DNA of 54,299 nt from a virus. The position numbers were made by a program, and so were the translations under genes. How positions within the stretch are numbered: the stretch's first letter is position 1; each line of letters starts with the position of its first letter. Where the stretch lies: positions 1-54,299 of the IMG/VR virus record IMGVR_UViG_3300034101_001509; one strand, given 5' to 3'. Below are positions 15,997 to 46,663 of this stretch, piece by piece. The notes under the pieces were generated by a model. The model searched no databases, was not told the origin of the DNA, and saw only the letters and a program-made list of their open reading frames with translations.

Positions 15997-16020
15997 GTTT
16001 TTCTCTCCTATATTCCTTTT

Positions 16021-16028
16021 TATTTATT
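16021..16028 (-). promoter_or_regulatory. Late promoter variant upstream of gene 23
   Basis: The minus strand reads AATAAATA, one mismatch from the T4 late consensus, in the 44-base gap before gene 23. The predicted leader is about 19 bases and holds AGGAGAG. A late promoter is expected ahead of the major capsid gene. Confidence 0.5.
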
Positions 16029-16040
16029 ATTTTTTATAAT

Positions 16041-22359: not shown

Positions 22360-24099
22360 TTAGTTCCTTTTTAATTTTTTCAAATCATCCCAGGGAGAGG
22401 GAACGTTAATTTTATCAAAAATTAACCAATCATCCCCCGATTTTGACCAATTTTTGTCTTCTTTGATATCATCTTCGTCATATATGCCATCTGTATAATA
22501 ACCAAAAGGAAGCATTTGTTCTTCTATTTCATCGATATCTTTTTGATACATTGCCAAACGAACATCCATATCCGTTAAATTTTTAAAGTATTGTTGACGA
22601 GTTGCCCACGCAAAAAGAACAAGACACATCACAAGATCGTCATTATGCCCATCCTCTGCTTCAAAACTTTGTTTCTTTGATATAAAAGTTGTAAATTCTG
22701 ATATTACATCAACATCCTCTACAATTAATTTATCTTCTTCGATCATATTTTTAAGAACTTGACAACCAACCTTTTTTGTCAGAACTGAGGTTTTGACACC
22801 CATTTGAACCTTTTTGACGCTTCCAAACCCTTCAGTTATTATTTGACCTTTTCTTCCCATCATAGCAGTTTTAACAATATTTTCATATTCTAAATCTGTG
22901 TGTAAAATATTCGCTACTTCAAATCCTATACTGTTTATTTCAACCAAAACATAAGCATTATTATATTTTCTAGCAATTGTTTTTAATACAGAAGCAAACA
23001 ATAGAGGAGAAACAGTATTATTACGATATACTGCCACTACTCTATATGGAAATTTTGTAACGTCTATTACTGTTAATGCTGTGTAATCTTTACCCTGACC
23101 TTCCGCAACGTCAGCAGTTATGAAGTAAATATGATCATATGAATTTTCTTTATCTGGATCTTTTCTTATTGGTTCCTCATAGACCGACATTCCATCCTTA
23201 GTTCTCAATATTGGTTTGCTATAAACCAAAGTGTGTAGTTTATCAGCAGATATTAAAGTATTGGAACTACCCAAGAAGTCACATTCAAATTCTTGTTCGA
23301 ATTGCTTTTCGGAAGTTTTGGAAATCATTTCCTTCTTCCATTTTTCATCTCTTAAAGGACCACCTGGATATTTTGGAACTTGACTCCAGTGGACTTCAAA
23401 GGGAACATAACCATTCTGATTGTTAATTGCTCCCTTCCAATAATAGTAAAACATATTCAACCCATTTGGAGTTGAAATAATAAACATCTTTGTTGATTGA
23501 CCCGAAGTAATAGTTGGATATACTGAGGTAAAGAATTCTTCTGCTATCTGAGTTGGAATGTGAGCAAACTCGTCAAGCAGAATACAGTTGAAAGAACCAC
23601 CACGAATCGCAGATGATGATGTTGCTGCTGCTAGAATTCTAGATCCGTTTTCCAATACAATAGATCCTTTATTCCATTCTATAACACCCTGCTGTAACCA
23701 CTTTGGTAAATATTCGTATGCCATCTTAATTCTTCCTAGAATTTCAATAGCAGTTGATTGTTTGTTTGCCAATATAGCAACATTCATGTTCTGATTAAAG
23801 AGAACATAATGTAATAGGTAAGCACCTACAGTTGTAGTCTTTCCTACCTGACGAGGAAGTTTACCTATTACGAATCTATTATGATGTAACTTATCAATAA
23901 GATCTTTCTGAAAGTCATACATCTCAAACGGGACAAGACCTTTATCTACAGCAACAATCTTTACATACTTTTCCACAAAATAAACAGGATCATTCGCACA
24001 TTTAATGTATTCTTGAACTTGTTCTGGTGTAAATTGTTGTTGTACGCCTACGGGTTTTAAATTTGGATTACCAAGATAACCATCTTTTTTAGCTGTCAT
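22360..24099 (-). CDS. 17: gp17 terminase large subunit
   Basis: 579 residues (T4 gp17 is 610). ATPase: Walker A LPRQVGKTT (81-89), Walker B ILLDEFA (173-179) and coupling motif STPNG (209-213). RNase-H-like nuclease: ITADVAEGQGKDYTA (327-341, D330), VEINSIG (386-392, E387) and DGHNDDLVMCL (483-493, D487/D488). It powers DNA packaging through the portal and cuts the concatemer. Its ATG lies inside the last codons of gene 16 (11-base overlap), so the two subunits are translationally coupled. Confidence 0.97.
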   Translation of the reverse strand: MTAKKDGYLGNPNLKPVGVQQQFTPEQVQEYIKCANDPVYFVEKYVKIVAVDKGLVPFEMYDFQKDLIDKLHHNRFVIGKLPRQVGKTTTVGAYLLHYVLFNQNMNVAILANKQSTAIEILGRIKMAYEYLPKWLQQGVIEWNKGSIVLENGSRILAAATSSSAIRGGSFNCILLDEFAHIPTQIAEEFFTSVYPTITSGQSTKMFIISTPNGLNMFYYYWKGAINNQNGYVPFEVHWSQVPKYPGGPLRDEKWKKEMISKTSEKQFEQEFECDFLGSSNTLISADKLHTLVYSKPILRTKDGMSVYEEPIRKDPDKENSYDHIYFITADVAEGQGKDYTALTVIDVTKFPYRVVAVYRNNTVSPLLFASVLKTIARKYNNAYVLVEINSIGFEVANILHTDLEYENIVKTAMMGRKGQIITEGFGSVKKVQMGVKTSVLTKKVGCQVLKNMIEEDKLIVEDVDVISEFTTFISKKQSFEAEDGHNDDLVMCLVLFAWATRQQYFKNLTDMDVRLAMYQKDIDEIEEQMLPFGYYTDGIYDEDDIKEDKNWSKSGDDWLIFDKINVPSPWDDLKKLKRN

Positions 24100-24556: not shown

Positions 24557-25305
24557 GGCCAATCTCCTACGACTGGAGTGGTAGAACCTGTAATGTAATC
24601 TCCAGTATATCCAATATCACCAACATAATAATCGACTGCGGTAGATCCTGGATCGGCAAAGAAATTGACATCTGTTCTTTCTATTAGTCCACCTGTTCCA
24701 CCACATATCTTTGGATAAATGTACGTCTTTGCCGTAAAATCAAAAGTACTAATAAGTGCTCTACGATTTTCAAAAGTTCCTTCATAATCCTCGTTTAAAG
24801 AAACATTGTTTAATACAAAAGGAATATCCACAGAATCATGAATATCATTCATTTTTATTGTCACTGTATAATCTGGAGCAAAAAATGGAACAATCTGTTC
24901 AATTATTTGTAACATATCGTCCATATTTCTAGTAAATGCGAATAGAGAAAAATTAATATTATATGGAACTTCTGCGTATACTTTTTTGAGAACTCCGTTT
25001 ACAACTTCTGCTCTTTGCGTTGTTCTATTCAATTTTCTTGCGGGATCATACATCAATGTTGATATTTCAAATCCAAGTTTTGGAAGAACAATTTGTACTC
25101 TACTATTTTTAGATAAACTGCTTTCTTGAGTAAGTCTCCATATAAATTTTTCTTTACTGCCATAACTTAAAGGTACTCTAATTTTTTCAATTTCAGTGCC
25201 ATCTTCTTCAAATCGTGTGACATATATTGATTCAAATAATGAACCAAATGCTATAACTATTTTTCTTATTGATTCATTATAAAAATATTGACTAACTGTA
25301 AACAT
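24553..25305 (-). CDS. 15: gp15 tail terminator / sheath stabiliser
   Basis: 250 residues from the ATG at 25305 (T4 gp15 is 272); a GTG at 25314 would extend it by three residues. Strong similarity in pattern to T4: YFYNESIRKIVIAFGSLFESIYVTR at the start, IRVPLSYGSKEKFIWRL (42-58), VQIVLPKLGFEISTLMYDPARKLN and FAFTRNMDDMLQIIEQIVPFFAPDYTVTI (about 128-156, T4 IFTRYEDDMFQIVEQILPYFQPHF). It closes the top of the tail tube and sheath and docks to the neck. The TAATG overlap with gene 14 indicates coupled translation. Confidence 0.95.
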   Translation of the reverse strand: MFTVSQYFYNESIRKIVIAFGSLFESIYVTRFEEDGTEIEKIRVPLSYGSKEKFIWRLTQESSLSKNSRVQIVLPKLGFEISTLMYDPARKLNRTTQRAEVVNGVLKKVYAEVPYNINFSLFAFTRNMDDMLQIIEQIVPFFAPDYTVTIKMNDIHDSVDIPFVLNNVSLNEDYEGTFENRRALISTFDFTAKTYIYPKICGGTGGLIERTDVNFFADPGSTAVDYYVGDIGYTGDYITGSTTPVVGDWP

Positions 25306-26228
25306 TAAGAGCACTCCTCGGAAAATGGATTATCTCTACTAAAGTTTAGAGTATTATCAGCTTCCTCGGCATATATATCATTTTCAATTTCATCAACACC
25401 AGAAATAGGATCAATTGAAAGATTGACATTTGTTTCATCAACATCTAATAGATAATATTCTACTCCATTAATCTTATTTTTGACAGATTGTGTTCCAGAA
25501 GATCCTGCCACAAATTGTCCGCTTACACCTTTAATATAAGTTGTATTTCCTGTATATTCTATAACAGTTCCTTCAGCGGTAGCGTTTGCGTATACTGCTG
25601 TAGCACCAGTAACGCCATTTACTTGAAACACAACATCACCTCGTTTGAGTGTTGCCGAACCGGAAACGGGAGAACTAGAAAGAGTAAATGTATACATGTT
25701 GTATTTTCTCTTTTCCTCGACATCATCAATTTCAGTAACTCCGGTTTCAATTTTCTCAAATGAATATGTAAAGAGTTCACATGTTAATGTGTAAATGTTT
25801 AATGTTCCAAATTGGAAAAATGGAATTTTATCTTCAACATAATTTATTTCAAATATACTTTTATTAAATGGAAAATATATTAAATCACCTTCTCTTGGTG
25901 TTCTAATTGTAGAATCTTTTGAATATATTTCTTTTTCAAATCTTGTTTTTGATACCTGAAGTGTAACTCTATCTGTAATATTAATTCCAAATTTATTAAT
26001 GATATTCATTTGTCCACCAAAGGCTGTAACATTTTGAATATACATTTCTATGGTGTAAGCATTTTTAAATTGAGATATAGGATCTTCTCCAAAAATTAAA
26101 TCACGATTCAAATACTCACGTGGAATATAAATCATGTCTCTACCCATCGCCTTGATTGTTTCTACAGTCAAGTCGTCAAGTAAAGTTTGTTCTCCAACGT
26201 ATTCTTTGAAATATGGATTTGTTGCCAT
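25305..26228 (-). CDS. 14: gp14 neck protein
   Basis: 307 residues (T4 gp14 is 256). [33 protein letters not shown] (34-66) aligns with T4 [31 protein letters not shown], and [30 protein letters not shown] with T4 [30 protein letters not shown]. An added beta-rich stretch of about 70 residues (roughly 180-255, Ser/Thr/Val-rich) accounts for the extra length and could be a surface decoration. It connects head portal to tail with gp13. Confidence 0.93.
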   Translation of the reverse strand: [307 protein letters not shown]

Positions 26229-27075: not shown

Positions 27076-27636
27076 TTATTTAGGTTCTTCTGCTGGTTTT
27101 TGTTGTATTGGTGGTTCGTGTGTTTTTACTGGAACCTTTTCAATTTCTTTATATGGTAATTGTTCAATATAATATCTTCTGGTAATTGGAGCATTCGCCT
27201 CATCTGGTTTAGATTTTTCGTAGTTTGAAAACCCTGGCATTTGAAGTGGACATGAGAGTCGAGGATAATCTAATTTGCTATATTCTTCATCCTGTGCTAA
27301 TAGCCATGTTCCTTTTCTATCGCCACATCCACAACCACCACAGAAGAATTTACCAGGAGTTGAACTTTGCTTTAAATATTCACATGGCGGCAAAACACCA
27401 CCCTGTTCTTTGTTTCCAAAGCAAGATACTACTCTAAGTTGTTTCATTGGAATTGTAACTTTTTCATTACCAAATCCACGGGAAGCAATTGCTGATGCGA
27501 AACTTTGCATCATAGTCAATTTTTCTTTGACTGCTCCCTCTTTTTTGATTTCTTCTTTTCTAAATTCAGGTTGAGTTGTTTGAGTTGTTTCTTCTGATTT
27601 ATTTTGATTATTTTTATTTTTACAATTACATCCCAT
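27076..27636 (-). CDS. Cys-rich hypothetical protein
   Basis: 186 residues from the ATG at 27636, chosen because ATGGAG stands 8 bases before it; an ATG at 27648 would add four residues and overlap the previous stop. It opens with MGCNCKNKNNQ and has a middle segment FFCGGCGCGDRKGTW with CPP/CPL cysteines around it, a pattern suited to binding one or two zinc ions. The C-terminus is Pro/Glu/Lys-rich (HEPPIQQKPAEEPK). No membrane segment is seen. It sits between the fibre cluster and the neck genes. No family is recognised; a small virion or assembly protein is possible. Confidence 0.5.
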   Translation of the reverse strand: MGCNCKNKNNQNKSEETTQTTQPEFRKEEIKKEGAVKEKLTMMQSFASAIASRGFGNEKVTIPMKQLRVVSCFGNKEQGGVLPPCEYLKQSSTPGKFFCGGCGCGDRKGTWLLAQDEEYSKLDYPRLSCPLQMPGFSNYEKSKPDEANAPITRRYYIEQLPYKEIEKVPVKTHEPPIQQKPAEEPK

Positions 27637-27647
27637 ATAGATCTCCA

Positions 27648-29150
27648 TTAGTATAGAATAATACGTCTAAAGAATAAAGCAGTTTCAACGTTTCTTTTAT
27701 TTATAAGAACAGTTCGATAATTTATAGGAATTATATTTGAAAAAGATTGTCCATAAACAAAAGATTTATTATTTAATTTACTACGATTTGTTTTTGAATT
27801 TAAATATTTTGTATTAAAAATACTAGACGAAATAACGTTAGCATATAGTTCAACATTATTTTCGAAAAGATATTGAGCATAGAAATTTAATTCATAAATT
27901 GAGGGAAGATAATAATCTATGAATCCATTTCTAGGTGTATTTTTAATTGTATTTGTAAGTGCTGTACTAAGTCCAATAAAATTATCAGCATTACCATAAG
28001 TATTATAATAACCATCCCACAAGGATGTTTTATAATCTACATCTAATTCATTTTCTAACAAAAATGGAACTGTATATTTTGTGGTATCGACAATTAATGC
28101 CCATTGACTATGTGTTCCTCCCTCGGGAGTGCCAACAAACCTAGAAGAATTTGGAGTTCCAAAATTTAAACTTCCGCGAATAACACTACTCTTTCCATTA
28201 TTTGGAGAAGGTTTGAATATTCCTATATAAATTCCACCTTGATATTCATCACCAACATTCAATTCTAAATCTTCAAAGGAAGATAAAGACATTTGTTGTG
28301 GTTGATATTTATTATTAATTTTTAATGGATTTGTTGGTTTTAATGAAGAGTTACAATATGGGTCGTCTGAATCTTGTTCTGGAACCCAATATCCATTACA
28401 TATTTCTCTGGGTGATATAGTACATGTATATTCATATGTACCATCAACAAGTTCTAATGTATAGCAAGATCCCATTTCAAAGCCTTGATATAGATTTGTG
28501 GACAATGCCATTCTAGTAACATATTCACTTGAGGCACATGTTATTGGAGATTGTCCAGCAATTAATGGTGGATTTCCACATCTACTATTTTCTGTAAAAA
28601 CAGAAGGATATACATCTGTAGATAAAGCAGCACAATCTGCTGATGTACAAACATCTTCACATTTTACATTTGTTGGCCAACCAGTATCTTCATCAAACTC
28701 TAAGTGACAACATGCTCTGGGTGCTCGAATATCTTGATCGTTTGAAACACAATAAGTTTCCCAATTACCATTTGCTAATTCTGGACAACTTCCTTCTGTC
28801 CACTTTCCACCAATTCTATTACATTCGCATTTTGTAACATTACTTCTTGTTCCCGATGTCAAATATGGATTTGACATTCCTTGAGAATATGTTGGTATTT
28901 GATTTAATTCTCCAGAAGTAACATATGAACATGAACAACAACAACCTCTTCTAGTATCTACATCTGGACATACTACAGAATTAGTATCTTCCCCTTTTGT
29001 TGGTACAAAATGACCACCTTCATTAAAGCACTCTATAAATGATTTTGAACTTCCAGTTCCTCCAGTTATACCACAACATACTCCATAAGCATTTAATAAC
29101 TTTGAGTAATCTATTGCTGGTTTAATTCTGGAACGAAATTGTAGTGTCAT
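27648..29150 (-). CDS. Cys-rich adhesin-like protein with lectin-like C-terminus
   Basis: 500 residues. Residues ~20-290 are packed with cysteines, including CC pairs in GVCCGITGGTG, RGCCCSCS and RACCHLEFDE, and look like divergent copies of the modules in the three larger neighbours. The C-terminal part has GDEYQGGIYIGIF (about 300-312) and YYLPSIYELNFYAQYL (about 411-426), the two landmarks of DUF1566/Lcl_C lectin-like domains. Unlike the neighbours it has no collagen-like repeat. It overlaps the 29.1-32.1 kb gene by four bases. It is likely a virion surface or fibre-tip protein for receptor binding; that role is inferred. Confidence 0.6.
   Translation of the reverse strand: MTLQFRSRIKPAIDYSKLLNAYGVCCGITGGTGSSKSFIECFNEGGHFVPTKGEDTNSVVCPDVDTRRGCCCSCSYVTSGELNQIPTYSQGMSNPYLTSGTRSNVTKCECNRIGGKWTEGSCPELANGNWETYCVSNDQDIRAPRACCHLEFDEDTGWPTNVKCEDVCTSADCAALSTDVYPSVFTENSRCGNPPLIAGQSPITCASSEYVTRMALSTNLYQGFEMGSCYTLELVDGTYEYTCTISPREICNGYWVPEQDSDDPYCNSSLKPTNPLKINNKYQPQQMSLSSFEDLELNVGDEYQGGIYIGIFKPSPNNGKSSVIRGSLNFGTPNSSRFVGTPEGGTHSQWALIVDTTKYTVPFLLENELDVDYKTSLWDGYYNTYGNADNFIGLSTALTNTIKNTPRNGFIDYYLPSIYELNFYAQYLFENNVELYANVISSSIFNTKYLNSKTNRSKLNNKSFVYGQSFSNIIPINYRTVLINKRNVETALFFRRIILY
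27698..27705 (-). promoter_or_regulatory. Possible late promoter inside the 3' end of the Cys-rich adhesin gene
   Basis: Exact TATAAATA on the minus strand, 62 bases before the ATG at 27636. It could drive the small Cys-rich gene, but it lies in coding sequence and the leader would be longer (~55 bases) than at the other sites. Confidence 0.3.
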
Positions 29151-32125
29151 GAATACTCGTTTGGACAGATTTCAAAATCATCACAATCATAATCACAAAC
29201 AATTGGAATACAAATCTCTTCATTATTTATGATAACTTTTACAAATTTAACAAAATCAGCAGAAGAATTAGTATCAGAATTATTAGTGAATGGCGTTGGT
29301 GGTGATGGTTGTTGTTGACCTGGAAATCCACTATTAGCACAATTATAATGTCCAGCAGCATCCGCGGAATTATTACAAGCACAAGTTCCTATCATTTTTC
29401 TTCTTGGAAAATTGCTTAATCCTAGAGCTTTTCCGTAGTGATCCATACATGGATCTTTAATAGAGGCACAAACTTCTTTACATGGATCATATTGTGCTGT
29501 ATCACAGATGCTTGCACCATCAACCATTATACACGATCCATAATTAATATCAAATCCGGATCCTAAAGGTTCTCCGGGTTGTGTTGGATCATCTGTTTCG
29601 GAGGAGCAGTGACCAGGACTTGCTGAAGAAGTATAATCTGCTCCCTGTGTAGTTGAACATGGGGAACTAGTAAGAGTACATAAATTAATTCCTCCACATC
29701 CACATATTGTTCTAATTTTTGAATCAGTTGATGCAGCTCCTGGTGAACTTCCTAAAAGAGTACTTAGACTTTCTATTGGATAACAACCCATTTCTGTAAG
29801 AATGTATTCTAGTATTTCTTGTTCCGATAACTGAGCACATAAATTTAAATCATATTGATCGCAAGCCGATCCGGGATTAGCAGTATTACAATTTGAAATA
29901 GTAGAACATCGATTGTTAGTTCCAAATAAATTTAGTTTTCTCCAAGCACAACACCTAGCAAAAGTATTAAATGCTCCAAAAACACCAGCACATCCAAGAT
30001 TTGTTCCACCTTGACCTGGGGTATCAGTTGGTCCACCTAATTGAAAATCTTGGCACGATAATCCTGGAGGTTTACCTCCTCTAGTTGTTATATTTCTTCT
30101 TACTGTTCGAAGAACTGCTTCTGTTGGTGAACCTGGAGGCGATTGTGCTGGAGCTGGAGATCTAGTACAATAAGAATATTGAATACAACAATCATTTCTA
30201 ACAAATTGACATCCATTAGGTCCAGATCCAGGTCCGGGAGGACCACCACCCGGTGGTGGTGGTGAAGTTTCAGGACCACTTCCTCCGTTATCTGGATCGT
30301 CTGGTCCGCCACCATCACCCGGTGATGGCGATGGAGTTGGTGTTGGTGTTGGAGTTGGAGTTGGTGTTGGAGTTGGTGTTGGAGTTGGTGTTGGTGTTGG
30401 AGTTGGTGTTGGAGTTGGTGATGGAGTTGGTGATGGTGATGGACTTGGTGATGGTCCAGGACTACACGATGGTCCACAAACACAACCACAACTTACTTCA
30501 TTACATTGTTTACCCGGACCCATAAAATTGCCGTTACTATCCACACAATCACTATAACTTTGAACGGAACATGTATATGTTCCGTCTGGGTTACATACAC
30601 AACATGCTCCATTTACTGTAGTGTTATCACAACAATCTACATCAATACATCCTTCATTTTCAGTAATTTGTTTTGATTTACCACCAAGAACTAACTCACA
30701 TTGAACTCTTGTATATTTTCCTAAACATACTCCGTCTTTACAACAAACTGCGTGATCATTCGGATCTGTTGGACATTGATTATAACAAAATCTTCCTAAA
30801 TTTCTTAATACTTGTGGTGGTACACTTTCATCGTCTGGTAGAGGAATATTCAATCCATCTGCGTTATAATCTCTACATTTAACATTTGGCCAATATTGTC
30901 CATTGAAAGTATCACAAAGAGAAACAGAAATATTTTCTATACATTTTCCGTTTGAACAACATACTCCATTTCCAGATCCACATGATTCTTTACAACTTTT
31001 TGCTGGAGTGAAAAATCCATACAATTGATTACATATATCTTTTGTTGTATAATCAACACATTCTAAAGTATTATCATTAATATTTCTATAACAGCAAGAA
31101 CCATATAAAAATCCAGGAACACATTGTCTTCCAGAATCTTCAATCCCATGACCACGATGTGAAACTGTTGCTAACCATGTATTTCCAGCATCATATGACA
31201 TTAATCCAATAATATTTTTACCACATGAAAGATAATTTTGATTTGGTTCAAAATAGATATTATCTGGAAAATTCCACACATTATCAGAATCAATCATTAC
31301 TGTTATTGAAACAATTTCATTTTGTCTAAAATCACCAGTTATACCTTGAATTCCAATTGGAGTTCTAACATTAAATACTCCAGCAGCGCGTGTATCTAAA
31401 AATATTCCTTGTGTAGTTCCCTCTCCTAAACCTTCAATTGATGGCAAACCTGTCAGTCCAACAAAATATTCTTTAGGAACAGGACCAACTTTGAGAATTT
31501 TTGAACCAGCATTTAAATGAGTTGCTGTATCTGAACTAGCACCCTGACTTGCTTCGGTAAACGTAAATCCAAATGCTCCACATATTCCTAGAGATATATC
31601 ATTTGCGTTTAGTGGATGATGTTTTAAATTTGCTCCATAAACAATATATGGAGTGTCTAGATACAACAACTCTCTTCCTGCCATTGTTGATGGATCATAA
31701 TTCCCAGGAAGATCATCTCCCCAATAAATCGTATCAATTGAAATATATTCATTATTTGTTCCTGCGTATGAAGCAACTAATGATCCATAGGCACATATAC
31801 CTTTAAATGTAAATGTTCCACCAGATATTGAATATAATAATCCTTCTCCATCTCCTATATTTTGACCACGAACAATTCCAGTAGTTTTATCCGCAGTTGT
31901 AGCACCCCTAAACGCACCAGTAGCACCAAATGTAGTTCCATCAGATAGAGTTATTATTATAGAATTATTTGAAGCACTAAAAGAAGAATAATAAGGTGCG
32001 ATATTTCCAGTTGCCCCTGTATTTCCAGTTGCCCCTGTATTTCCAGTACTTCCGGTTGCCCCAACAGGACCATCTGGACCAGAACTACCGTAAACTGTAA
32101 AATTAATAATTGCGCTATTGCTCAC
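29147..32125 (-). CDS. Collagen-like, Cys-module, Pro/Thr-stalk fibre protein
   Basis: 992 residues from a GTG at 32125 with AAGGG upstream. Order of parts: a short N-terminal collagen-like Gly-x-y stretch (about 16-42, GATGNTGATG type); a beta-rich domain to ~340; four Cys modules of form GxCC...C...C...G...C (343-555), e.g. NGVCCSNGKCIENISVSLC; an SP/TP-repeat and Pro/Gly-rich linker (552-640); and a second Cys-rich region with spaced CC pairs to the end, closing with CDYDCDDFEICPNEYS. No signal peptide or membrane helix. It is likely a trimeric tail or head fibre exposed outside the cell. It has no DUF1566-like end, unlike its three relatives. Confidence 0.65.
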   Translation of the reverse strand: MSNSAIINFTVYGSSGPDGPVGATGSTGNTGATGNTGATGNIAPYYSSFSASNNSIIITLSDGTTFGATGAFRGATTADKTTGIVRGQNIGDGEGLLYSISGGTFTFKGICAYGSLVASYAGTNNEYISIDTIYWGDDLPGNYDPSTMAGRELLYLDTPYIVYGANLKHHPLNANDISLGICGAFGFTFTEASQGASSDTATHLNAGSKILKVGPVPKEYFVGLTGLPSIEGLGEGTTQGIFLDTRAAGVFNVRTPIGIQGITGDFRQNEIVSITVMIDSDNVWNFPDNIYFEPNQNYLSCGKNIIGLMSYDAGNTWLATVSHRGHGIEDSGRQCVPGFLYGSCCYRNINDNTLECVDYTTKDICNQLYGFFTPAKSCKESCGSGNGVCCSNGKCIENISVSLCDTFNGQYWPNVKCRDYNADGLNIPLPDDESVPPQVLRNLGRFCYNQCPTDPNDHAVCCKDGVCLGKYTRVQCELVLGGKSKQITENEGCIDVDCCDNTTVNGACCVCNPDGTYTCSVQSYSDCVDSNGNFMGPGKQCNEVSCGCVCGPSCSPGPSPSPSPSPTPSPTPTPTPTPTPTPTPTPTPTPTPTPTPTPSPSPGDGGGPDDPDNGGSGPETSPPPPGGGPPGPGSGPNGCQFVRNDCCIQYSYCTRSPAPAQSPPGSPTEAVLRTVRRNITTRGGKPPGLSCQDFQLGGPTDTPGQGGTNLGCAGVFGAFNTFARCCAWRKLNLFGTNNRCSTISNCNTANPGSACDQYDLNLCAQLSEQEILEYILTEMGCYPIESLSTLLGSSPGAASTDSKIRTICGCGGINLCTLTSSPCSTTQGADYTSSASPGHCSSETDDPTQPGEPLGSGFDINYGSCIMVDGASICDTAQYDPCKEVCASIKDPCMDHYGKALGLSNFPRRKMIGTCACNNSADAAGHYNCANSGFPGQQQPSPPTPFTNNSDTNSSADFVKFVKVIINNEEICIPIVCDYDCDDFEICPNEYS
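30321..30450. repeat. Hexanucleotide repeat encoding a Ser/Thr-Pro stalk
   Basis: The plus strand alternates GGTGTT, GGAGTT and GGTGAT units, giving Thr-Pro or Ser-Pro pairs on the coding strand. The 6-base unit keeps frame if copy number changes. Both plus- and minus-strand shadow frames through it are artefacts of the repeat. Confidence 0.85.
32000..32080 (-). repeat. Collagen-like Gly-x-y coding repeat (29.1-32.1 kb gene)
   Basis: Tandem 18-base units, GGGGCAACTGGAAATACA type on the coding strand, encode GATGNT triplets with glycine at every third residue. Two plus-strand units are identical, suggesting recent duplication or homogenisation. Confidence 0.8.
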
Positions 32126-32129
32126 TTAA

Positions 32130-35100
32130 TTACCCTTCTATTTGTCCGCAACCTGGACATGCTACTGGACCTTCCGTATGTGGATCACACAATCCTTCAA
32201 GGATATCTATACATGATGAACATATTATAGATTGTTCATTTTGTTGAGTGACAGCATAGTATGCTAAAACAGTTTCAGTAAATCTAAAAGTATTACATGT
32301 AACTATAAGTGGAATTCTTCTAACTGGTCGTAAATGAGCAATTCTCGAATCTCTAGATCTAGAAGTCATCATTCCTAATTTATTTTCGTTACCTTCATCG
32401 ACATTAAATGTCTGAGTTAACATTTTTTGACCATTTGAAACTGCCATTGTAAACTTATAAGCATCATCTTCATTTAACCCATATGGATTTGTACTTGTTA
32501 TTCTATTTGTAGATAAATATGGTTCTAAATTAGGATTTATATTTTCTAAATTATAAGAATCTTTATCAAATGGATTTGTATTATCCCATGATATTAAACG
32601 AGAAACACTTGTAGAACTCCAATATTCTTTTCCTGCTAGTATTTGGTCATCGTTTATAGCAAGCGAAGCATTCAAATCTGCTAAATTACTATAAATGTAA
32701 TTCAATTCAATAATACTTGGAATATACCAATCATTATGACCATATGAATTTGTCGCATTTATGTCAGAAATTTGTCGTATTGCTGAATTTAATGGATTTT
32801 TCGCTGCCCATAAATTAGCATATGCTTCTTTAAATGCTTCTTTATTTGTTGTTATTTCTTCTTCAGATACAGATTCTTCCCATGCTGGTCCATTTCCAAA
32901 GCAAAATCTTCTATAAGCATTTGGATCTTCGGTGTCTCCTCTGAACCAATAACTTGTATTTCTTGTTGATGCTTCGTCGTGAAGTCTTGTTGTCAAAAGA
33001 CCATCTACTGGATATGTTGGTATTTCTTCATTTACTACAAATAATGGAACTCCATTATCATCAGCAAGATGAGTTCCCTGATTCATTCCCCAACTTAAAA
33101 GTCTAGAACCTTCAGGACTTTCTCCTTCACCCGAACCGACTTCAACATCTTCTGGTCCAATAATCAATGCCCATAGAATATGAATATCTTTAGACCCATA
33201 AACTTTTGTTGCCAAATATTTGTATAAATTATCAATTTGCCCATTACTACCTTCTTCTAAAAATTCAACAGCAAGACCAGATCCTACTAGTGAATATGAG
33301 AAAGTTCCTCGTTGTGGCGTATATCCAAATCCACCTTCAAACATAAATTCTGATGGCCATGTAATTCCATTTAAAGCATACGCTTGTTGTACAATTGGAA
33401 CTCCTGCCTTTAACATACAACGAGTATTTAATGAATCTACCGGTAAAATATTTGGATATGTTCTAGCAAAATAATCAATATTTCCTGTGTTATCTTGCCC
33501 TGCGGTTCCCTTACATGTTTTATATTTCCAACCAGAAACCGAAGTTTCTCCTCTTGGGAAAATTAAACATTCTAGTGGTTCTCCATTAGCAAGAGCAGGA
33601 TTTACATAACGATCACATGGATTTGGCATTCCAACAAATCCAACAAAATATCCTCCACCGATCTTATCTCCAGGTTGTAAACAAGAGAATGATTGATTTT
33701 CTCCAAATGCTTTACATTGATCATTTGCCACAAAATAATCATCTTGATAAGTGTATCCACAGCAAGAAGTTAAAGCACATTTTGTTCCAGATCCTTGAAA
33801 GATACCATCTTGATCTTGGCATTCTTGTGGGGTTAAATCTGGAGTACAATCTCTTCCTTTACAACAAGCTCCGCGAATATCAAAATGTACACAACAGCAA
33901 ACACTATCTCCTTCCTCTGCTTCACATGTAGATCCTGCTACGAAATGTGAATCGTATATTGAGTTACAATCTGTTTCAGAAAGATTAAAACATCTTCCCT
34001 GAACACAGCATTTTCCTATTTCTCTAGGAGAGCAAAAATTATCTGGACAGGTAAATAGTTGAGATCCTTCCCATACAAGAGAACAGGACTTTCCTCCATA
34101 AAATATTCCACCAAAGTCTAAACATCTTTCTTGTGTAGTATTTAAACATTTTGTTGTTTCTTCTTCTGGATCATATACACAACATGCTCCTTCAGAATAA
34201 CAATCAGAACTAGTAATTCTATTGTCACATGAACTATTGCTAAATCTTCCAGAGATAGAATCGCAATATGTCTGAGAAACATAATCTATACAAATTGTAT
34301 CTTCAAAATTATTTTTACAATAACAACAAGAACCTATTGATTCTCTTGTTAAATTTTGAGGAGCATATACATTTGCCTGAGACAATCCAGATGAAGGATG
34401 GAAAGAAAGTCTTTCCATTGTCGCCCCACTTGTAAATCCAATAATAATAGATTGTGATAATTGTATTCCAGAATCATTAAATGGAACTATAAATTTATTT
34501 GAATTTAAATTATAGGCGAATTGTGGACTAATCGTATTTTCTATAATCGAAGTACCAAATGTGCCACCAGTAATTCCTGCGTAATATGATAATGAAGAAT
34601 TATATGGAGTAAATGTCCAATTTGAAAATTTCCAATTTTTATTTAAATGAATAGTTTCTCTACTCATTAATTGATCTATAATCAATTGTCTCTCTGATGG
34701 AACCCATTTAGTATTTGGAGCAGATGCTGCTTTTAGTGAACCAGCACCAAATCCAGCGTTACTGTTTACATAAAGAATTTCTCCAGTATTTCCGAGTGGA
34801 ACATTTACATCAGCAACTGTAGCACCATACAAAAATACAACAAATGAATTTGAACTAATTCCTACAAATGACCCTGTAGTTATTGGTGTTGGTGTAGACC
34901 CTTCAATTGTTAGTGTTTTAAACGAAGCAGTTTGACCAGCAGAATAGTCTCTATTATTAGAATAAACAAAATCTGAAGATATTGAAACTGATTCTGGAGA
35001 GATGATACCAAGATCATTTAAACTATAATATTCTCCACTATTTGCTGATCCAGCATCACCTTGTAAATTTGAAAATTGAAAAGTTTTTCCATTTCCAATA

Positions 35101-35297
35101 AATGTTATATACGAATTGCCTGTAGAATACGATATTCCTGTAATTCCAAATCCAGTTGGTCCTATATTTCCAGTAATTCCAATCGGACCTGTTGGACCAG
35201 TAGCACCAGTTGGACCAGTAGCACCAGTTGGACCTGGATTTGCACCAGGAACATTTCCGGATATTAATTGAGTGAATCTTGATGAACCGTATATCAT
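32130..35297 (-). CDS. Collagen-like, Cys-module fibre protein with lectin-like C-terminus
   Basis: 1,055 residues. A collagen-like stretch at 21-50 (GPTGATGPTGATGPTG type) follows a short N-terminal anchor. A beta-rich domain runs to ~320. Four tandem Cys modules occupy 322-515: GSCCYCKNN, GACCVYDPEEE, GKCCVQGRC and GACCKGRDC, each followed by a Cys, a T/S-x-x-x-C and a G-x-F/Y-x-G-x-x-x-C end. The C-terminal region has GDKIGGGYFVGF (543-554), WYIPSIIELNYIY (857-869), YWSSTS and HLRPVRRI (989-996), the DUF1566/Lcl_C landmarks. It overlaps the upstream relative by four bases. A receptor-binding fibre is the best reading. Confidence 0.68.
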   Translation of the reverse strand: MIYGSSRFTQLISGNVPGANPGPTGATGPTGATGPTGPIGITGNIGPTGFGITGISYSTGNSYITFIGNGKTFQFSNLQGDAGSANSGEYYSLNDLGIISPESVSISSDFVYSNNRDYSAGQTASFKTLTIEGSTPTPITTGSFVGISSNSFVVFLYGATVADVNVPLGNTGEILYVNSNAGFGAGSLKAASAPNTKWVPSERQLIIDQLMSRETIHLNKNWKFSNWTFTPYNSSLSYYAGITGGTFGTSIIENTISPQFAYNLNSNKFIVPFNDSGIQLSQSIIIGFTSGATMERLSFHPSSGLSQANVYAPQNLTRESIGSCCYCKNNFEDTICIDYVSQTYCDSISGRFSNSSCDNRITSSDCYSEGACCVYDPEEETTKCLNTTQERCLDFGGIFYGGKSCSLVWEGSQLFTCPDNFCSPREIGKCCVQGRCFNLSETDCNSIYDSHFVAGSTCEAEEGDSVCCCVHFDIRGACCKGRDCTPDLTPQECQDQDGIFQGSGTKCALTSCCGYTYQDDYFVANDQCKAFGENQSFSCLQPGDKIGGGYFVGFVGMPNPCDRYVNPALANGEPLECLIFPRGETSVSGWKYKTCKGTAGQDNTGNIDYFARTYPNILPVDSLNTRCMLKAGVPIVQQAYALNGITWPSEFMFEGGFGYTPQRGTFSYSLVGSGLAVEFLEEGSNGQIDNLYKYLATKVYGSKDIHILWALIIGPEDVEVGSGEGESPEGSRLLSWGMNQGTHLADDNGVPLFVVNEEIPTYPVDGLLTTRLHDEASTRNTSYWFRGDTEDPNAYRRFCFGNGPAWEESVSEEEITTNKEAFKEAYANLWAAKNPLNSAIRQISDINATNSYGHNDWYIPSIIELNYIYSNLADLNASLAINDDQILAGKEYWSSTSVSRLISWDNTNPFDKDSYNLENINPNLEPYLSTNRITSTNPYGLNEDDAYKFTMAVSNGQKMLTQTFNVDEGNENKLGMMTSRSRDSRIAHLRPVRRIPLIVTCNTFRFTETVLAYYAVTQQNEQSIICSSCIDILEGLCDPHTEGPVACPGCGQIEG
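35148..35243 (-). repeat. Collagen-like Gly-x-y coding repeat (32.1-35.3 kb gene)
   Basis: Repeated GGTGCTACTGGTCCAACT units on the coding strand encode GATGPT triplets. The codons Thr and Pro dominate the x and y positions. T4-like phages commonly use such stretches as trimer-forming fibre shafts. Confidence 0.8.
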
Positions 35298-38200
35298 GGT
35301 GTATTCTTAAATATTGTTGCTGTTTGAGGATCAATATTCCATCGGGAAGAACTATAAGTTGCCCCTGATTGATTATTTAAATCTAATTGAAAAATATTTG
35401 TAACATTTGATCTTGGAAGTAATCCCGTTACAACTGTAGAAATTGTCAATCTTGGCACTTGCCAGAAGGTATTTTTTAATTGAGTGTCCGAATTACTATT
35501 ATAGTATCTTTGATCACATCGAACCATTCGTACTAATCTTAATTCTAAACGATCATCCAAATCATGAAATTTTGAAACTTTATAGTTACTAGTATTTTGA
35601 CTAAGTGTACTTGGATCAAATTTTATCGCCCAAGCATTTGTAAATTGTGATGTTTGATTGATACCAGAATTTAATGGATCTATACTCGCCACTGCACTCT
35701 GTCTTTGAATATATTGAGCAGTAGCTCCATCTTTCCAAGCACCAGTTGATGTCCACACATAAGACTTAGTATATTGAATATTTGCGAGAGGAGAATTGGG
35801 ACTATTAACTCCTGTAGGACCAACACCTGCCGAAGACCAATCTAGACTATTCAGTCTTGGATCTCCAATGACAATTCCACCAGCATTATTAATAGTTTGT
35901 TGTAAATTGTCATCTCTACATGCTTTTGCTATAAATCCAAGTTCATCTATACTTGGAATATACCAATGTGAAAGTGTTGGATATTGATTATTCAGAGCAC
36001 TATATCCAGGAAGAGAAACATTTAATAAACCTGTATGGTTTCCTGTTGGACCATCTACAGGAAAATATAAACGATTCCATACAGAACATCCCTCTGAAAT
36101 TGTGGTCTTATTTAAAGCAGGCCAACCACCATTATCTAATCCATTACTAATATTAACTTTTAATTGTATAATTCCTGTCCATCCAGGTATGGTATTTGTA
36201 GATGTAGGTAAAGAACTTAATCCTGATATTTCACCTGTTGCTCCATAAAATGATTTTAAATTTGATGGAAATAAACCACTTCCACTATACAAATAGTGTT
36301 CAGCAATTTGAGATTTTATTAGAGCAATTGTGTTATATATTCCATGATTCCTTGACCATTTACCACAAGATCCTGCCAATCCTGATTTTAAATATCTTCT
36401 AGATCTTAGTCCTGGATATTCTTCACAATTACTACATGAAGTAGTAATATCACAAAAACACGTTCGAAATAACACATCTAATGAGTTCGTTGCTTGAACA
36501 TTAGTTGCAGCACCTCCACCATAACCAAATGCTCCATCAATTTTTAATTGTTGATTTCCGGATACAGTTTGATATTCGTGAATTATAACAGAACCAGTAT
36601 TTGTAATATTAGTATAACAATCTGTAGTTGTTGATTCTGAAAATGCAGTAATATTAGTTGTTAATAAATCTGAAAATCCTAAAAGATCGCAATGGGATGT
36701 CCCACCATGACTCCACACGAAATTTTTAATATTATAATAAGCATATTGTAAACCTACTCCTCCTATGACACCACAATCAGCGTATCTAGAATTTTCCCAG
36801 TTTAGATTTCCCAGATCATTTACAGGTATCCATAAATTATCATTAATGAAATTTGTTCCATCAATTAATTTAATAAAATGATTTTGATTTGGAGCAGCTG
36901 AACCATTATAATTTGCATATTGTCTAAACATAACAGGATGTTTAGATACAATTAGTAACCATTTATCTTGATCACGATCGTGCTCAATAGTCGATACAAC
37001 ATCATTTAATGTAAATCCATATCCTCTAAGATCATAAAAACTTTGATAAATTCCTGCTGGTCTTTCTACTGCTCCATTTGATAAAGTAGAACCTGTGTAA
37101 AAATTAAATGCTTTTATTCTTGTTGTTCCTATTACTCCTGTCCAGAATGGATTGTTTGGATTAGAAGTGCTACTTCCTGCAAAATAATTACAAGAATTTA
37201 GTTCAACACCAGGATTTACATAACCACCAAATGCTGTATTGCCTAAACATTGAGAACCATTTGGATTGAAAATTCCAACTACAATGCCACCAGCAAACTC
37301 TTGACCTTTGACTATATTTTCATATGTTCCATTTGCTTTGCGAATTTTCCAAGGATAATTAGAAGTTCCATCACCATCACATAAATTAAATGAAGAAGGA
37401 GTACATGGACCATCTCCACAGATTTTTCCACAACCATAAAATAATCCAGATCCACCGTTACAATTTGCTAGTCCATTAACTTCATTTACACAAGATGCGC
37501 TACTGCTTGTAGAAGTACAACATCCACCAGTTCCTGTTGTACAAACATTAAATTGTTGTCCAGAACCATAAATGTATGAACATTTAATTCCAGGGCCTTG
37601 CCAATATTTGTTGAGACAATCCGGTTGAGTAGTCTCTGTACATAATCCAGTACCATCACAGCAAGCACCAATGTCACTGAAATAATCAATACAATCAATA
37701 GCATCAACATTTTTAATACAATCTGTTTTTTTTGTCCATTTATAGCGAGATTTATCATCATTTCCAAGTGCTTGACATTCACAAGCTAGTTTAAATTCAG
37801 ATGATCTTTGTATAAAATTATTTCCATCTTTATAACAGCAAACTCCAACTTCTGTGCTTTCGGCAGAACATGATGACCCATCGGTTATCCATCTGGGAGC
37901 ATCTGAATTACATGGATTAGGATTGGTAGAAGACTCTAGAGAACTAGCAGCATAACTAAATCCAGTACAATCGTTACAACATGTTCCAGGAGTAGTTTCA
38001 TCTACGCAAGTTAAATTGTTTACACATTGAGCACATGTTGTACAAGATTCTATCCGTGAATATCCTTGTGGGCATGATGGATTTGTACCTTGTTGGTCTA
38101 TACATAAAGTTCCATTACAACAAACGATTGTTATTGGAGTGTTGTCTTCACATTCAGAACAATCATTAACTACTGTCCCACCATCATTATTACATGCTTC

Positions 38201-39529
38201 TTGTAAATAATCGTAAACACAGTCAAATGGTTTTTGCTTACAGCAAGTTACCAGTAATGGTGATGGACCAGGTGGTGGACTAGATTCACAAGGATCACTT
38301 GGTCGATCAATTTGTACACCACCTTGACAACCAGTGGTTGTATTTGATTGATATACAATACTGTCTCCACCAGATTCTGGAGTATAACAACAATATATTG
38401 TTGTTGGTTGAGGTCCACCTCCAGGAATTTCATAAACTGGATCAGACAATCTATTTGATCCCGGACAATTGTTATATTCAGCACTCCATTCTACAACATC
38501 AGATTCAGAATTGTATAAACCATAATTTGCATACCAAATATTATCCAAAGATATCATATTGATGACATCATTATTTTCAGTAAAACATGGAGCATATTTT
38601 AAAGGCCATGATATTGAATAATTACCCGATTGAAGTGTTACTCCAGCAGATAAATTATCAGTTGTAGCATACTTGGTTAAAATTTCTCCAGTAATACCAG
38701 AAGGAATAATGATTGTTATTCCTTTAGCGATATCTGCTGCTGGAGGATTTCTAACCAATACAATTTGAGCAATTGGTTGTTCATTTACTTCTATTAAATG
38801 AGTCCATTCACTCAATATGAATGTATTTGCTTTTTCCCAATCTATAGACCAATAAAAATATCTACCAGCTGTACTTGAACCACTATTAGTATATGCTGTT
38901 TTCTTTATTGGTTCGACAAAGTGAACACGTTCTCCATAATTTAGAATTTGCATATCCACAGTCTTCTTTAAAATATCATATTTTGTTCCAGTAAGACCGT
39001 AGAAATAATTTGTAGAAGAATCCCTTACAACTAATTGTCCATCAGATCCTCCAGATATACCAAGATATGGAAGTCCTGCTAAATTATATGAAATATTAAT
39101 TTCTTCAGAATCGTTTAAAGATTCTATGCGAATGAATTGAAGATTATCATTTTTCGATGAAGTAGTAAATCCTCTAAAATTCAGAGTAGATAAGATATTT
39201 CCATCTGGAAAATTTTGATAACAAACTCCATGGAGTATTTCAAACGCATCTGTTGTTTGTGTTGCTCCTCCAGCAAAAATATAATAATTGCCTGGAGCAC
39301 CTTTTATATTTGCCGAAGTTATAGCAGAATTATCAGAAAATGTAGTAACAATATTTCCATCTACAAGTGTCATTCCAATAACACTTGGTCCACTAAAACC
39401 AGTATTTCCGGTATTACCAGTATTACCATTATTACCAGTTGGACCTGTCGAACCAGTATCTCCGGTTGGACCTGTTGTTCCGATAATATTTTTCTTTACA
39501 TAAGGACTGCTACCGTAAATATAACTCAT
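35294..39529 (-). CDS. Largest collagen-like, Cys-module fibre protein with lectin-like C-terminus
   Basis: 1,411 residues. Collagen-like 17-48 (GPTGDTGSTGPTG type); beta-rich domain to ~375; Cys-rich region 379-717 containing modules such as GTCCNDCTG, GVCCYKDG, GACCDGTGLCTETTQPDC and GGCCTSTSS; then GQEFAGGIVVGIF (743-755). A long insert precedes WYIPSIDELGF (about 1190-1200), YVWTSTG (about 1260) and LELRLVRMVRC (about 1335-1345). The last ~60 residues are a separate beta strand-rich tail. Same architecture as the next gene, so the two are paralogues of different age. It starts four bases after the stop of the 39.5 kb fibre gene. Confidence 0.68.
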   Translation of the reverse strand: MSYIYGSSPYVKKNIIGTTGPTGDTGSTGPTGNNGNTGNTGNTGFSGPSVIGMTLVDGNIVTTFSDNSAITSANIKGAPGNYYIFAGGATQTTDAFEILHGVCYQNFPDGNILSTLNFRGFTTSSKNDNLQFIRIESLNDSEEINISYNLAGLPYLGISGGSDGQLVVRDSSTNYFYGLTGTKYDILKKTVDMQILNYGERVHFVEPIKKTAYTNSGSSTAGRYFYWSIDWEKANTFILSEWTHLIEVNEQPIAQIVLVRNPPAADIAKGITIIIPSGITGEILTKYATTDNLSAGVTLQSGNYSISWPLKYAPCFTENNDVINMISLDNIWYANYGLYNSESDVVEWSAEYNNCPGSNRLSDPVYEIPGGGPQPTTIYCCYTPESGGDSIVYQSNTTTGCQGGVQIDRPSDPCESSPPPGPSPLLVTCCKQKPFDCVYDYLQEACNNDGGTVVNDCSECEDNTPITIVCCNGTLCIDQQGTNPSCPQGYSRIESCTTCAQCVNNLTCVDETTPGTCCNDCTGFSYAASSLESSTNPNPCNSDAPRWITDGSSCSAESTEVGVCCYKDGNNFIQRSSEFKLACECQALGNDDKSRYKWTKKTDCIKNVDAIDCIDYFSDIGACCDGTGLCTETTQPDCLNKYWQGPGIKCSYIYGSGQQFNVCTTGTGGCCTSTSSSASCVNEVNGLANCNGGSGLFYGCGKICGDGPCTPSSFNLCDGDGTSNYPWKIRKANGTYENIVKGQEFAGGIVVGIFNPNGSQCLGNTAFGGYVNPGVELNSCNYFAGSSTSNPNNPFWTGVIGTTRIKAFNFYTGSTLSNGAVERPAGIYQSFYDLRGYGFTLNDVVSTIEHDRDQDKWLLIVSKHPVMFRQYANYNGSAAPNQNHFIKLIDGTNFINDNLWIPVNDLGNLNWENSRYADCGVIGGVGLQYAYYNIKNFVWSHGGTSHCDLLGFSDLLTTNITAFSESTTTDCYTNITNTGSVIIHEYQTVSGNQQLKIDGAFGYGGGAATNVQATNSLDVLFRTCFCDITTSCSNCEEYPGLRSRRYLKSGLAGSCGKWSRNHGIYNTIALIKSQIAEHYLYSGSGLFPSNLKSFYGATGEISGLSSLPTSTNTIPGWTGIIQLKVNISNGLDNGGWPALNKTTISEGCSVWNRLYFPVDGPTGNHTGLLNVSLPGYSALNNQYPTLSHWYIPSIDELGFIAKACRDDNLQQTINNAGGIVIGDPRLNSLDWSSAGVGPTGVNSPNSPLANIQYTKSYVWTSTGAWKDGATAQYIQRQSAVASIDPLNSGINQTSQFTNAWAIKFDPSTLSQNTSNYKVSKFHDLDDRLELRLVRMVRCDQRYYNSNSDTQLKNTFWQVPRLTISTVVTGLLPRSNVTNIFQLDLNNQSGATYSSSRWNIDPQTATIFKNTP
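39386..39481 (-). repeat. Collagen-like Gly-x-y coding repeat (35.3-39.5 kb gene)
   Basis: Glycine at every third residue for about ten triplets, mostly GPT, GNT and GDT. Asn is more frequent than in the other copies, so the repeat has drifted. Confidence 0.78.
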
Positions 39530-45533: not shown

Positions 45534-46663
45534 GAACATGCCGATCCTGCGTTTGGAGATCCTATATCTGCCGAATAACATAATTCTAACATTGTGTTGA
45601 TATTTATATCTTTAAAATTAAATACGTCAGTTTGGGTTGTCCAGGAAGGGAATAAGTAAGTTGGTCCAGTAAATCCAGAAAAACTAGCACCACAACAACC
45701 AGTATTTGCTGTCAATCCAACATAAGTTATTCCTGCTACTGGTGTAGTTCCGATATAAATTCCAGCAGTTCTTCCCGAATAATTAAAAGATATACCATAT
45801 GGAGCATAATTTTTTAAGAATGGATATTCGCATACAAATGGTGCTGTTTCATCAAATGTTGGTCCCTGATAATCTGCTAGAGTTTTTTCAAAAACAACTT
45901 TTATTCCAGCAGGATGCATTATATTTAAATAATTTTCTTTATATTTGCTGAATAGTATTCCAACCTTTAATAAATATGACCAATCTTGAATCCAATTACT
46001 GTCTTGTATTCTAGAACCATTTAAATAACTTCCACTTAATGTTCCTATCTCCTCATACCCACCAGTTCCACTTGGAAACTTAAAGTTTTCATCATAAAAA
46101 CGACCACCATTAAGTCTTAATATATTTTTCTTTGGTGTTTCTACATTTATAGATTCTTCATCAATTCCATATAGTCTAGTAAAGAAATATTTAATTCCAT
46201 CTTCTGTTGTTTTCTTTTGATATAAAGAAGTTTTTATATTTTTAAGAAAAAGACGAAGATTTTCTTCTCTTACAACACCGCCATTAGTTTCTAAGGAATT
46301 TACATTAAATCCATCAGCAAATGAAAATGCTAATTTTTCTAAAAATTGAGATTTAGTTTCATCAATATCAATTAGACTTAAAAAATCTTGACTTAATTCA
46401 TATTGCGAACCTAAAGAACTATCGCAATATAACCAATCATAATATTTTTGTATAAAATCAAAAATAGATAAAGTTGATTGATTATTTTCTAATCTTTCTT
46501 GTTTTTCTCTCAAAACCCAATCCGGTATTTGTTCTGTTATATCGTATTGAGTTCCACAACCAATATTAAATGCTATATTTTGTAAATCTAAAATAGCATC
46601 AGAAAGTTTAGATAATCTAAACCTTACTGTTGGTTGTTGACTGTTGAGTGTTGTTGAAAGCAT
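45530..46663 (-). CDS. Baseplate wedge protein, gp7-position
   Basis: 377 residues. LEKLAFSFADGFNVNSL (104-120) and FLKNIKTSLYQKKTTEDGIKYFFTRLYGID (134-163) resemble the wedge-initiator region shared by gp7-type and tail-protein-I-type proteins, in which a helical bundle is followed by a strand-rich segment (LRLNGGRFYDENF). Its position between gp6 and gp8 agrees with the T4 order 6-7-8. T4 gp7 is 1,032 residues, so this would be a much reduced form. The C-terminal ~100 residues are Gly/Thr/Cys-rich. The start forms TAATG with the gp6 stop. The gp7 name is by position and weak pattern only. Confidence 0.55.
   Translation of the reverse strand: MLSTTLNSQQPTVRFRLSKLSDAILDLQNIAFNIGCGTQYDITEQIPDWVLREKQERLENNQSTLSIFDFIQKYYDWLYCDSSLGSQYELSQDFLSLIDIDETKSQFLEKLAFSFADGFNVNSLETNGGVVREENLRLFLKNIKTSLYQKKTTEDGIKYFFTRLYGIDEESINVETPKKNILRLNGGRFYDENFKFPSGTGGYEEIGTLSGSYLNGSRIQDSNWIQDWSYLLKVGILFSKYKENYLNIMHPAGIKVVFEKTLADYQGPTFDETAPFVCEYPFLKNYAPYGISFNYSGRTAGIYIGTTPVAGITYVGLTANTGCCGASFSGFTGPTYLFPSWTTQTDVFNFKDININTMLELCYSADIGSPNAGSACS
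45601..45608 (-). promoter_or_regulatory. Possible internal late promoter before gp8
   Basis: Exact TATAAATA on the minus strand inside the 3' end of the gp7-like gene, 68 bases before the gp8 start. The leader would be about 60 bases, longer than the other sites. Confidence 0.4.

What the first reader, a model, noticed from the sequence alone, without database searches (positions are those of the whole stretch)
33753..34334. A tandem GxCC cysteine module (about 40 residues) repeated in phage fibres
Four consecutive modules in this protein, four in the 29-32 kb protein (30461-31099) and at least four in the 35-39 kb protein (37379-38395) follow G-x-C-C-x(n)-C-x-x-x-T/S-x-x-x-C-x(n)-G-x-aromatic-x-G-x-x-x-C. 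I recall similar motifs in secreted proteins of planctomycete-type bacteria, but could not check. So many cysteines in proteins made in a reducing cytoplasm suggests oxidation after lysis, or metal binding.
Basis: partly seen in the sequence, partly recalled or inferred. Interest (0 to 1): 0.75.

Follow-up and report, generated by a model that had tools for sequence, protein, structure and literature searches.

The report
Six-cysteine module in phage fibres
Adhesin-like fibre proteins of an uncultured T4-like phage carry a small six-cysteine building block that no database used here names, that is abundant in secreted proteins of planctomycete-type bacteria, and that also matches the outer domain of the animal protein iRhom, giving that supposedly one-of-a-kind domain possible bacterial and viral relatives.

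Summary
The repeat is real. ORF 32130-35297(-) holds four GxCC modules at the stated place (shuffles give 0.1). Neighbouring ORF 29147-32125 holds three strong and one degenerate copy; ORF 35294-39529 only one strong and one marginal copy, fewer than claimed. All lie in a four-gene cassette between T4-like baseplate and neck genes, conserved in related viral contigs. Three genes have collagen-like N-termini and three share an Lcl-like C-terminus: adhesins/fibres by inference. The module is a six-cysteine unit, CC-x4-5-C-x7-C-x13-C-x4-C, without a match in Pfam, NCBIfam or PHROGs. A phage-only HMM finds it in planctomycete proteins; a bacteria-only HMM finds it in the window. Against the PDB, a module profile matches only iRhom1/iRhom2 (E 4e-4 to 1e-3; reversed control none), and an AlphaFold model aligns to the same iRhom segment in register. 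Across 1,148 bacterial modules, C2 and C6 are lost together (8 of 8) and C1 and C4 together (2 of 2), predicting bonds C1-C4, C2-C6, C3-C5. Disulfides are favoured over metal. Host, oxidation route and ligand are unknown.

The parts
32130..35297 (-). Gene C (1055 aa): collagen-like N-terminus, four tandem six-Cys modules, Lcl_C-like C-terminal part; the protein of the finding
34227..34334 (-). Gene C module 1, GSCCYCKNNFEDTICIDYVSQTYCDSISGRFSNSSC
   Evidence: 32.7 bits with phage HMM
34083..34190 (-). Gene C module 2, GACCVYDPEEETTKCLNTTQERCLDFGGIFYGGKSC
   Evidence: 39.0 bits; planctomycete-only HMM iE 1.8e-4
33924..34016 (-). Gene C module 3, GKCCVQGRCFNLSETDCNSIYDSHFVAGSTC
   Evidence: 29.0 bits
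33759..33872 (-). Gene C module 4, GACCKGRDCTPDLTPQECQDQDGIFQGSGTKCALTSCC; most canonical copy, the one that aligns to iRhom in the model
   Evidence: planctomycete-only HMM iE 9.4e-7
35145..35240 (-). Collagen-like repeat of gene C
   Evidence: PF01391, 16.2 bits, below cut-off
32601..32819 (-). Lcl_C-like (PF07603) region of gene C
   Evidence: 28 bits, cut-off 34.9; all 5 homologues match, best E 3.5e-7
29147..32125 (-). Gene B (992 aa): collagen-like N-terminus, 3 strong + 1 degenerate module, Pro/Thr-rich linker, further Cys-rich part
30992..31102 (-). Gene B module 1
   Evidence: 39.3 bits
30875..30967 (-). Gene B module 2
   Evidence: 33.8 bits
30695..30745 (-). Gene B degenerate module (CCKDGVCLGKYTRVQCE...)
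   Evidence: 6.6 bits; orthologous copies
30488..30610 (-). Gene B module 4 (with its sixth Cys)
   Evidence: 34.9 bits; planctomycete-only HMM iE 0.001
35294..39529 (-). Gene D (1411 aa): collagen-like N-terminus, one strong and one marginal module plus irregular CC pairs, Lcl-like motif near the C-terminus
37577..37669 (-). Gene D module, strong
   Evidence: 27.0 bits; planctomycete-only HMM iE 9.3e-7
37418..37528 (-). Gene D module, marginal
   Evidence: 10.2 bits
27648..29150 (-). Gene A (500 aa): divergent N-terminal GVCC module and Lcl-like C-terminus similar to genes C and D
   Evidence: homologues with HMM-detectable module
27076..27648 (-). Small conserved Cys protein (MGCNC..., 8 Cys in relatives) between the cassette and the neck genes; role unknown

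Best explanation
The repeat is a compact (31-41 residue) six-cysteine beta-beta-alpha-beta module held by three disulfides (predicted C1-C4, C2-C6, C3-C5). It is built in tandem into adhesin fibres of a T4-like phage: a collagen-like stalk at the N-terminus (so probably trimeric), a stiff disulfide-stapled module array in the middle, and an Lcl-like binding domain at the C-terminus. The same module family is used in large numbers in secreted, surface-type proteins of Phycisphaerae and related bacteria, and the phages share it with such bacteria, most simply by gene exchange. Shown by computation: the repeat, its homology to the bacterial modules, the gene context, the paired cysteine loss. Inferred: virion location, trimer, disulfides in the phage copies (formed on release into oxic water), host-binding role and gene exchange.
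For: Repeat against shuffles. Phage-only HMM finds 319 module domains (iE<0.01) in the genome contigs and viral-contig loci, 0 in shuffles; a planctomycete-only HMM finds the window modules. Pattern scan: 120+ stretches, nearly all Planctomycetota; the frame-broken pattern gives 0. 48 of 198 genomes of one planctomycete class and 20 of 47 of the phylum of an Eisenbacteria-labelled genome carry it, often tens of copies. Same spacing in both groups. AF2 single-module model pLDDT 85. Only iRhom in the PDB matches the profile, reversed control negative, structural alignment in register. Paired loss C2-C6 8/8 in 6 loci and C1-C4 2/2. Cassette with collagen and Lcl-like parts in the baseplate-neck interval of T4-like contigs.
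Against: No virion proteomics, no isolate and no host. Cysteine distances in the models were not measurable. Collagen and Lcl_C matches are below Pfam's curated cut-offs. The four-module model is only of middling confidence (pLDDT 73, pTM 0.37). The C1-C4 evidence comes from one protein. 108 bacterial modules lack a nearby C6 while keeping C2. Phage cytoplasm is reducing and no phage thiol oxidase was identified. Shared composition could inflate similarity between Cys-rich proteins, although shuffles and the reversed profile argue against that.
Confidence: 0.7

Rival explanations
1. The cysteines bind metal (zinc or iron-sulfur), which would suit a reducing cytoplasm, and the module is a small metal-stapled fold.
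For: The proteins are made in the cytoplasm; adjacent CC pairs are seen in some metal sites; the neighbouring small MGCNC protein also has many cysteines.
Against: No conserved His, Asp or Glu ligand in the profile. Bacterial copies are exported (signal-peptide-like N-termini). Cysteines are lost in specific pairs, as expected for disulfides and not for a four-ligand site. The solved relative iRhom is stapled by disulfides (PMC11248996, PMC12184519).
Confidence: 0.12
2. Like-binds-like: the phage arrays recognise the host's own GxCC-module surface proteins, so the module is itself the receptor-binding part rather than a spacer.
For: The same family is expanded to tens of copies per genome in candidate host bacteria and sits in the phage adhesin slot.
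Against: Host unknown. Modules lie between the stalk and an Lcl-like C-terminal domain, which is the more usual binding tip. No evidence for module-module binding.
Confidence: 0.15
3. The resemblance to iRhom (and, less plausibly, between phage and bacterial modules) is convergence of small disulfide-rich units.
For: Short Cys-rich units converge easily; the iRhom E-value is modest (4e-4) and Z is 4.0; Foldseek alone did not list iRhom among its 50 displayed hits.
Against: The phage-bacterial relation holds with reciprocal HMMs and shared non-Cys positions (GG-x-aromatic-x-G, T-xxx-C). For iRhom: the four cysteine gaps fit (6,7,13,4), a second partial copy is in register in the same domain, it is the only PDB family hit, the reversed profile is negative, and the structural alignment falls on the same residues.
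Confidence: 0.3

Closest known systems
GxCC six-Cys modules of secreted Phycisphaerae/Planctomycetota (and Eisenbacteria, Zixibacteria) proteins; no family name found in Pfam, NCBIfam or PHROGs
   Same: Sequence, cysteine spacing, tandem use at about 38-45 residues; reciprocal HMM hits
   Different: Bacterial copies sit in exported proteins with signal-peptide-like starts and, often, dockerin-like ends; phage copies sit between collagen and Lcl-like parts and often have longer C1-C3 loops and variable C5-C6 gaps
iRhom homology domain (IRHD/IHD) of human iRhom1/iRhom2 (PDB 8snl, 9o58, 9q7y, 9xy4)
   Same: CC-x6-C-x7-C-x13-C-x4-C; AF2 phage model aligns to 8snl_B 568-612, Z 4.0, rmsd 2.6 over 41 residues, in register; a second partial copy in the same domain
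   Different: iRhoms are animal membrane pseudoproteases; one full and one partial unit inside a domain of about 240 residues; no collagen or Lcl part
Lcl collagen-like adhesin (NCBIfam NF046116, Pfam PF07603 Lcl_C)
   Same: Collagen-like repeats followed by an Lcl_C-like C-terminus
   Different: Scores below the curated cut-offs; a Cys-module array is inserted; phage gene context
T4 short tail fibre / baseplate-neck fibre genes (gp9-gp12, wac slot)
   Same: Same position between baseplate wedge genes and neck genes in a T4-like order
   Different: No match to those families in the scans; four Cys-rich genes with shared parts instead

Membership tests
Planctomycete-type GxCC six-Cys module | Six cysteines with spacing about 5/7/13/4 and G-x-aromatic-x-G between C4 and C5 | tested here: met
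Planctomycete-type GxCC six-Cys module | Significant reciprocal profile matches between phage-only and bacteria-only models | tested here: met
Planctomycete-type GxCC six-Cys module | Disulfide pairing C1-C4, C2-C6, C3-C5 in the phage copies | not testable with these tools
   Inferred from bacterial copies only; model coordinates not available
iRhom homology domain module | Six-Cys spacing as in iRhom (6/7/13/4) and profile match | tested here: met
   (E 3.9e-4 to 1.1e-3), reversed control
iRhom homology domain module | Same three-dimensional fold | tested here: inconclusive
   Z 4.0 and 3.8, in register, but middling Z; single-module Foldseek search returned nothing
iRhom (whole protein) | Rhomboid membrane domain next to the IRHD | tested here: not met
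   no rhomboid match in Pfam scans: the relation is at module level only, these are not iRhoms
Lcl collagen-like adhesin | Lcl_C domain above gathering score and equivalog score | tested here: not met
   PF07603 28 bits vs 34.9; NF046116 13.5 bits vs 500
T4-like phage virion fibre | Gene lies in the baseplate-to-neck interval of a T4-like structural cluster | tested here: met
T4-like phage virion fibre | Protein present in the virion | not testable with these tools
   no isolate or proteomics

The most novel reading that the evidence does not exclude
The extracellular domain of animal iRhoms, reported as structurally without precedent, is built from copies of a six-cysteine module that is widespread in planctomycete-type bacteria and in T4-like phages, so the iRhom domain would share ancestry with a bacterial or viral module.
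Probability: 0.45. Interest if true: 0.85.

Novelty: new variant of a known kind. Interest (0 to 1): 0.66.

Why it matters
It identifies a domain family that the libraries used here do not name although some bacterial genomes hold tens of copies. It ties a group of uncultured T4-like phages to planctomycete-type surface proteins, a lead on their hosts. It gives a candidate fold relative for the iRhom domain that controls release of TNF and EGF-receptor ligands, with a blind disulfide prediction that can be checked at once against deposited structures.

Tried and rejected
Phage isolates: tblastn of the whole protein and of the four-module region in 50,697 phage records found nothing credible. 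My first pattern scans used a 53-letter pattern that broke the frame by one base through my own counting error; both gave 0 and now serve as a negative control. Single-module Foldseek search gave no hit and VIA had nothing useful to compare; Foldseek on the four-module model gave only insignificant hits, among them Kunitz domains and phicrAss001 vertex proteins, dismissed. Survey of a whole phylum with the phage-only profile A1 found 4 of 199 genomes, so the module is patchy or that profile misses many; the class survey with the broader profile A4 found 48 of 198. A control survey in Pseudomonadota was not possible because no handle is held. Host clues from the 117.8 kb relative (ORFs read by eye, tRNAs): no photosystem genes seen, nothing decisive. 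Literature searches found no description of the module. A second set of 284 bacterial modules showed no loss of C1-C5, so it neither adds to nor contradicts the pairing. PDB search with the C-terminal region found nothing.

Full report
What is there. The window is a 54.3 kb viral record with a T4-like structural cluster read on the minus strand: baseplate wedge genes (46663-48414, 43770-45581), then a block of large genes, then a neck gene (head closure Hc2, 25305-26228), sheath stabiliser, TerL (22360-24099), sheath, tube, portal, scaffold and gp23 major capsid protein (14509-15996). The best-listed relatives of TerL and gp23 are Synechococcus myoviruses at about 55-59% identity. The finding lies in the block between baseplate and neck, where T4 keeps gp9-gp12 and wac (T4 order from general knowledge).

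The observation. ORF 32130-35297(-) holds four modules in the stated interval. A pattern for the module finds 4 against a shuffled mean of 0.11 (max 3 in 2,000); ORF 29147-32125 has 3 against 0.10; ORF 35294-39529 has 2 against 0.14 (P 0.0095). With an HMM, gene B has three strong and one degenerate copy, gene D one strong and one marginal copy. The claim of at least four in gene D is therefore not borne out. A fourth gene, A (27648-29150), has a divergent N-terminal GVCC stretch that the HMM does not detect in the window; similar genes beginning MSIQFR in other contigs (for example in L135, L147 and L169) start with a module the HMM detects.

Architecture. Genes B, C and D begin with a short leader and a collagen-like repeat; genes A, C and D share an Lcl_C-like stretch near the C-terminus. 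The cassette, followed by a small MGCNC protein and the neck genes, is conserved among L003-L011 where the contigs reach that far, with identities of the query protein from 85% down to 40%. A broader set of low-GC contigs found through the module pattern carries the same kind of collagen-plus-module genes, many beside homologues of the window's neighbours. Pfam, NCBIfam and PHROGs gave no match to the module itself (PHROGs was run on the phage proteins only).

Relatives in bacteria. Of the 80 listed, about 71 are labelled planctomycete (mostly Phycisphaerae), 4 Eisenbacteria or Zixibacteria, 5 plain 'bacterium'; because the scan stopped at its limit this is a sample, not a census. The same pattern with one base missing gave no hit. 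An HMM from phage modules alone finds 319 module domains (iE<0.01) in the loci, which include viral loci besides bacterial ones, and none in their shuffles. An HMM from 674 bacterial rows alone finds window modules with iE down to 9e-7 at Z=1000. The modal spacing between cysteines is shared: 4-5, 7, 13, 4. In the class of one planctomycete genome, 48 of 198 genomes carry the module, many with 30 or more copies; in the phylum of an Eisenbacteria-labelled genome 20 of 47 do. Many of the bacterial proteins have signal-peptide-like starts and dockerin-like ends, read by eye, and one carries multicopper oxidase domains and another a lamin-tail domain.

Fold and the iRhom match. AlphaFold2 on one module with 62 aligned sequences gives mean pLDDT 85 and a beta-beta-alpha-beta layout; the same layout recurs in the four modules of gene C, at lower confidence. 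A profile of 62 modules searched against all PDB sequences matches four sequences only, all iRhom1 or iRhom2, at E 3.9e-4 to 1.1e-3, across all six cysteines with gaps 6, 7, 13, 4. Two smaller profiles give the same family first; a profile of reversed modules does not. VIA-align puts iRhom2 8snl_B (Z 4.0, rmsd 2.6, 41 residues) and iRhom1 9q7y_A (Z 3.8) first among the 87 chains it aligned from Foldseek's candidates, matching module 4 of the phage protein to iRhom2 568-612, the residues found by sequence. A Z of 4 is weak alone; the agreement in register is what counts. The candidate list comes from Foldseek, which also uses sequence letters, so the two tests are not fully independent. The iRhom domain was reported to be stapled by 8 disulfides and without similar structures (PMC11248996; also PMC12184519).

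Disulfides. In 1,148 bacterial modules the first five cysteines are rarely lost. In the 8 modules that lack C2, C6 is also absent (8 of 8, six loci; Fisher P 9e-9, not corrected for relatedness); in the 2 that lack C4, C1 is also absent (one protein). The definition of 'C6 present' was refined between so as not to count the first cysteine of the next module; the C2-C6 link was seen in all three versions. This predicts bonds C2-C6 and C1-C4, leaving C3-C5. A metal site would not be expected to lose cysteines in such pairs. It remains an inference for the phage copies. How phage proteins made in a reducing cytoplasm become oxidised is not shown; formation after release is the simplest guess.

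Mechanism. Most likely these are virion adhesins: collagen-like stalk, disulfide-stapled module array as a stiff and variable spacer or binding surface, Lcl-like tip. Sharing of the module with Phycisphaerae-type bacteria suggests gene exchange and is a hint that such bacteria are hosts, but the host is not established: no spacer, no isolate and no clear host-derived gene was found.

Novelty. Phage fibres with collagen-like parts are a known kind. The module family is unnamed in the libraries searched, and its link to iRhom appears to be new as far as the open papers searched here show (subscription journals not covered).

Noticed in passing
L175:1-9000 and 15220-16964 (117.8 kb relative, IMGVR_UViG_3300027754_005993): About ten ORFs begin with MKSFKQ(Y/F)ITE or a close variant, resembling the capsid-targeting sequence of T4 internal proteins (from memory), so this phage group may package and eject many internal proteins.
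   Followed up: no
window 27076-27648 (-): Small MGCNC... protein, 8 cysteines in relatives, found between the fibre cassette and the neck genes; no match in PHROGs or in phage isolates.
   Followed up: partly
L153:9891-10889, L155:3-416, L165:6190-6930, L166:9019-9513: High-GC (58-62%) viral contigs with short proteins beginning MSCCSCC or MACTCTCCC, or holding CCCSQNGACC, followed by the module: possibly a different phage type using the same unit.
   Followed up: no
window 1045-4044 (-): Glycosyltransferase genes (families 2 and 10) near the clamp loader gene; the relative contig also has RfbA/RfbB-like sugar-nucleotide genes (the latter read by eye).
   Followed up: no
window 7631-8037: This gp46-like (SMC_N) gene matches Methylophilales phage Melnitz records where the feature is annotated 'major capsid protein', probably a misannotation there.
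   Followed up: no
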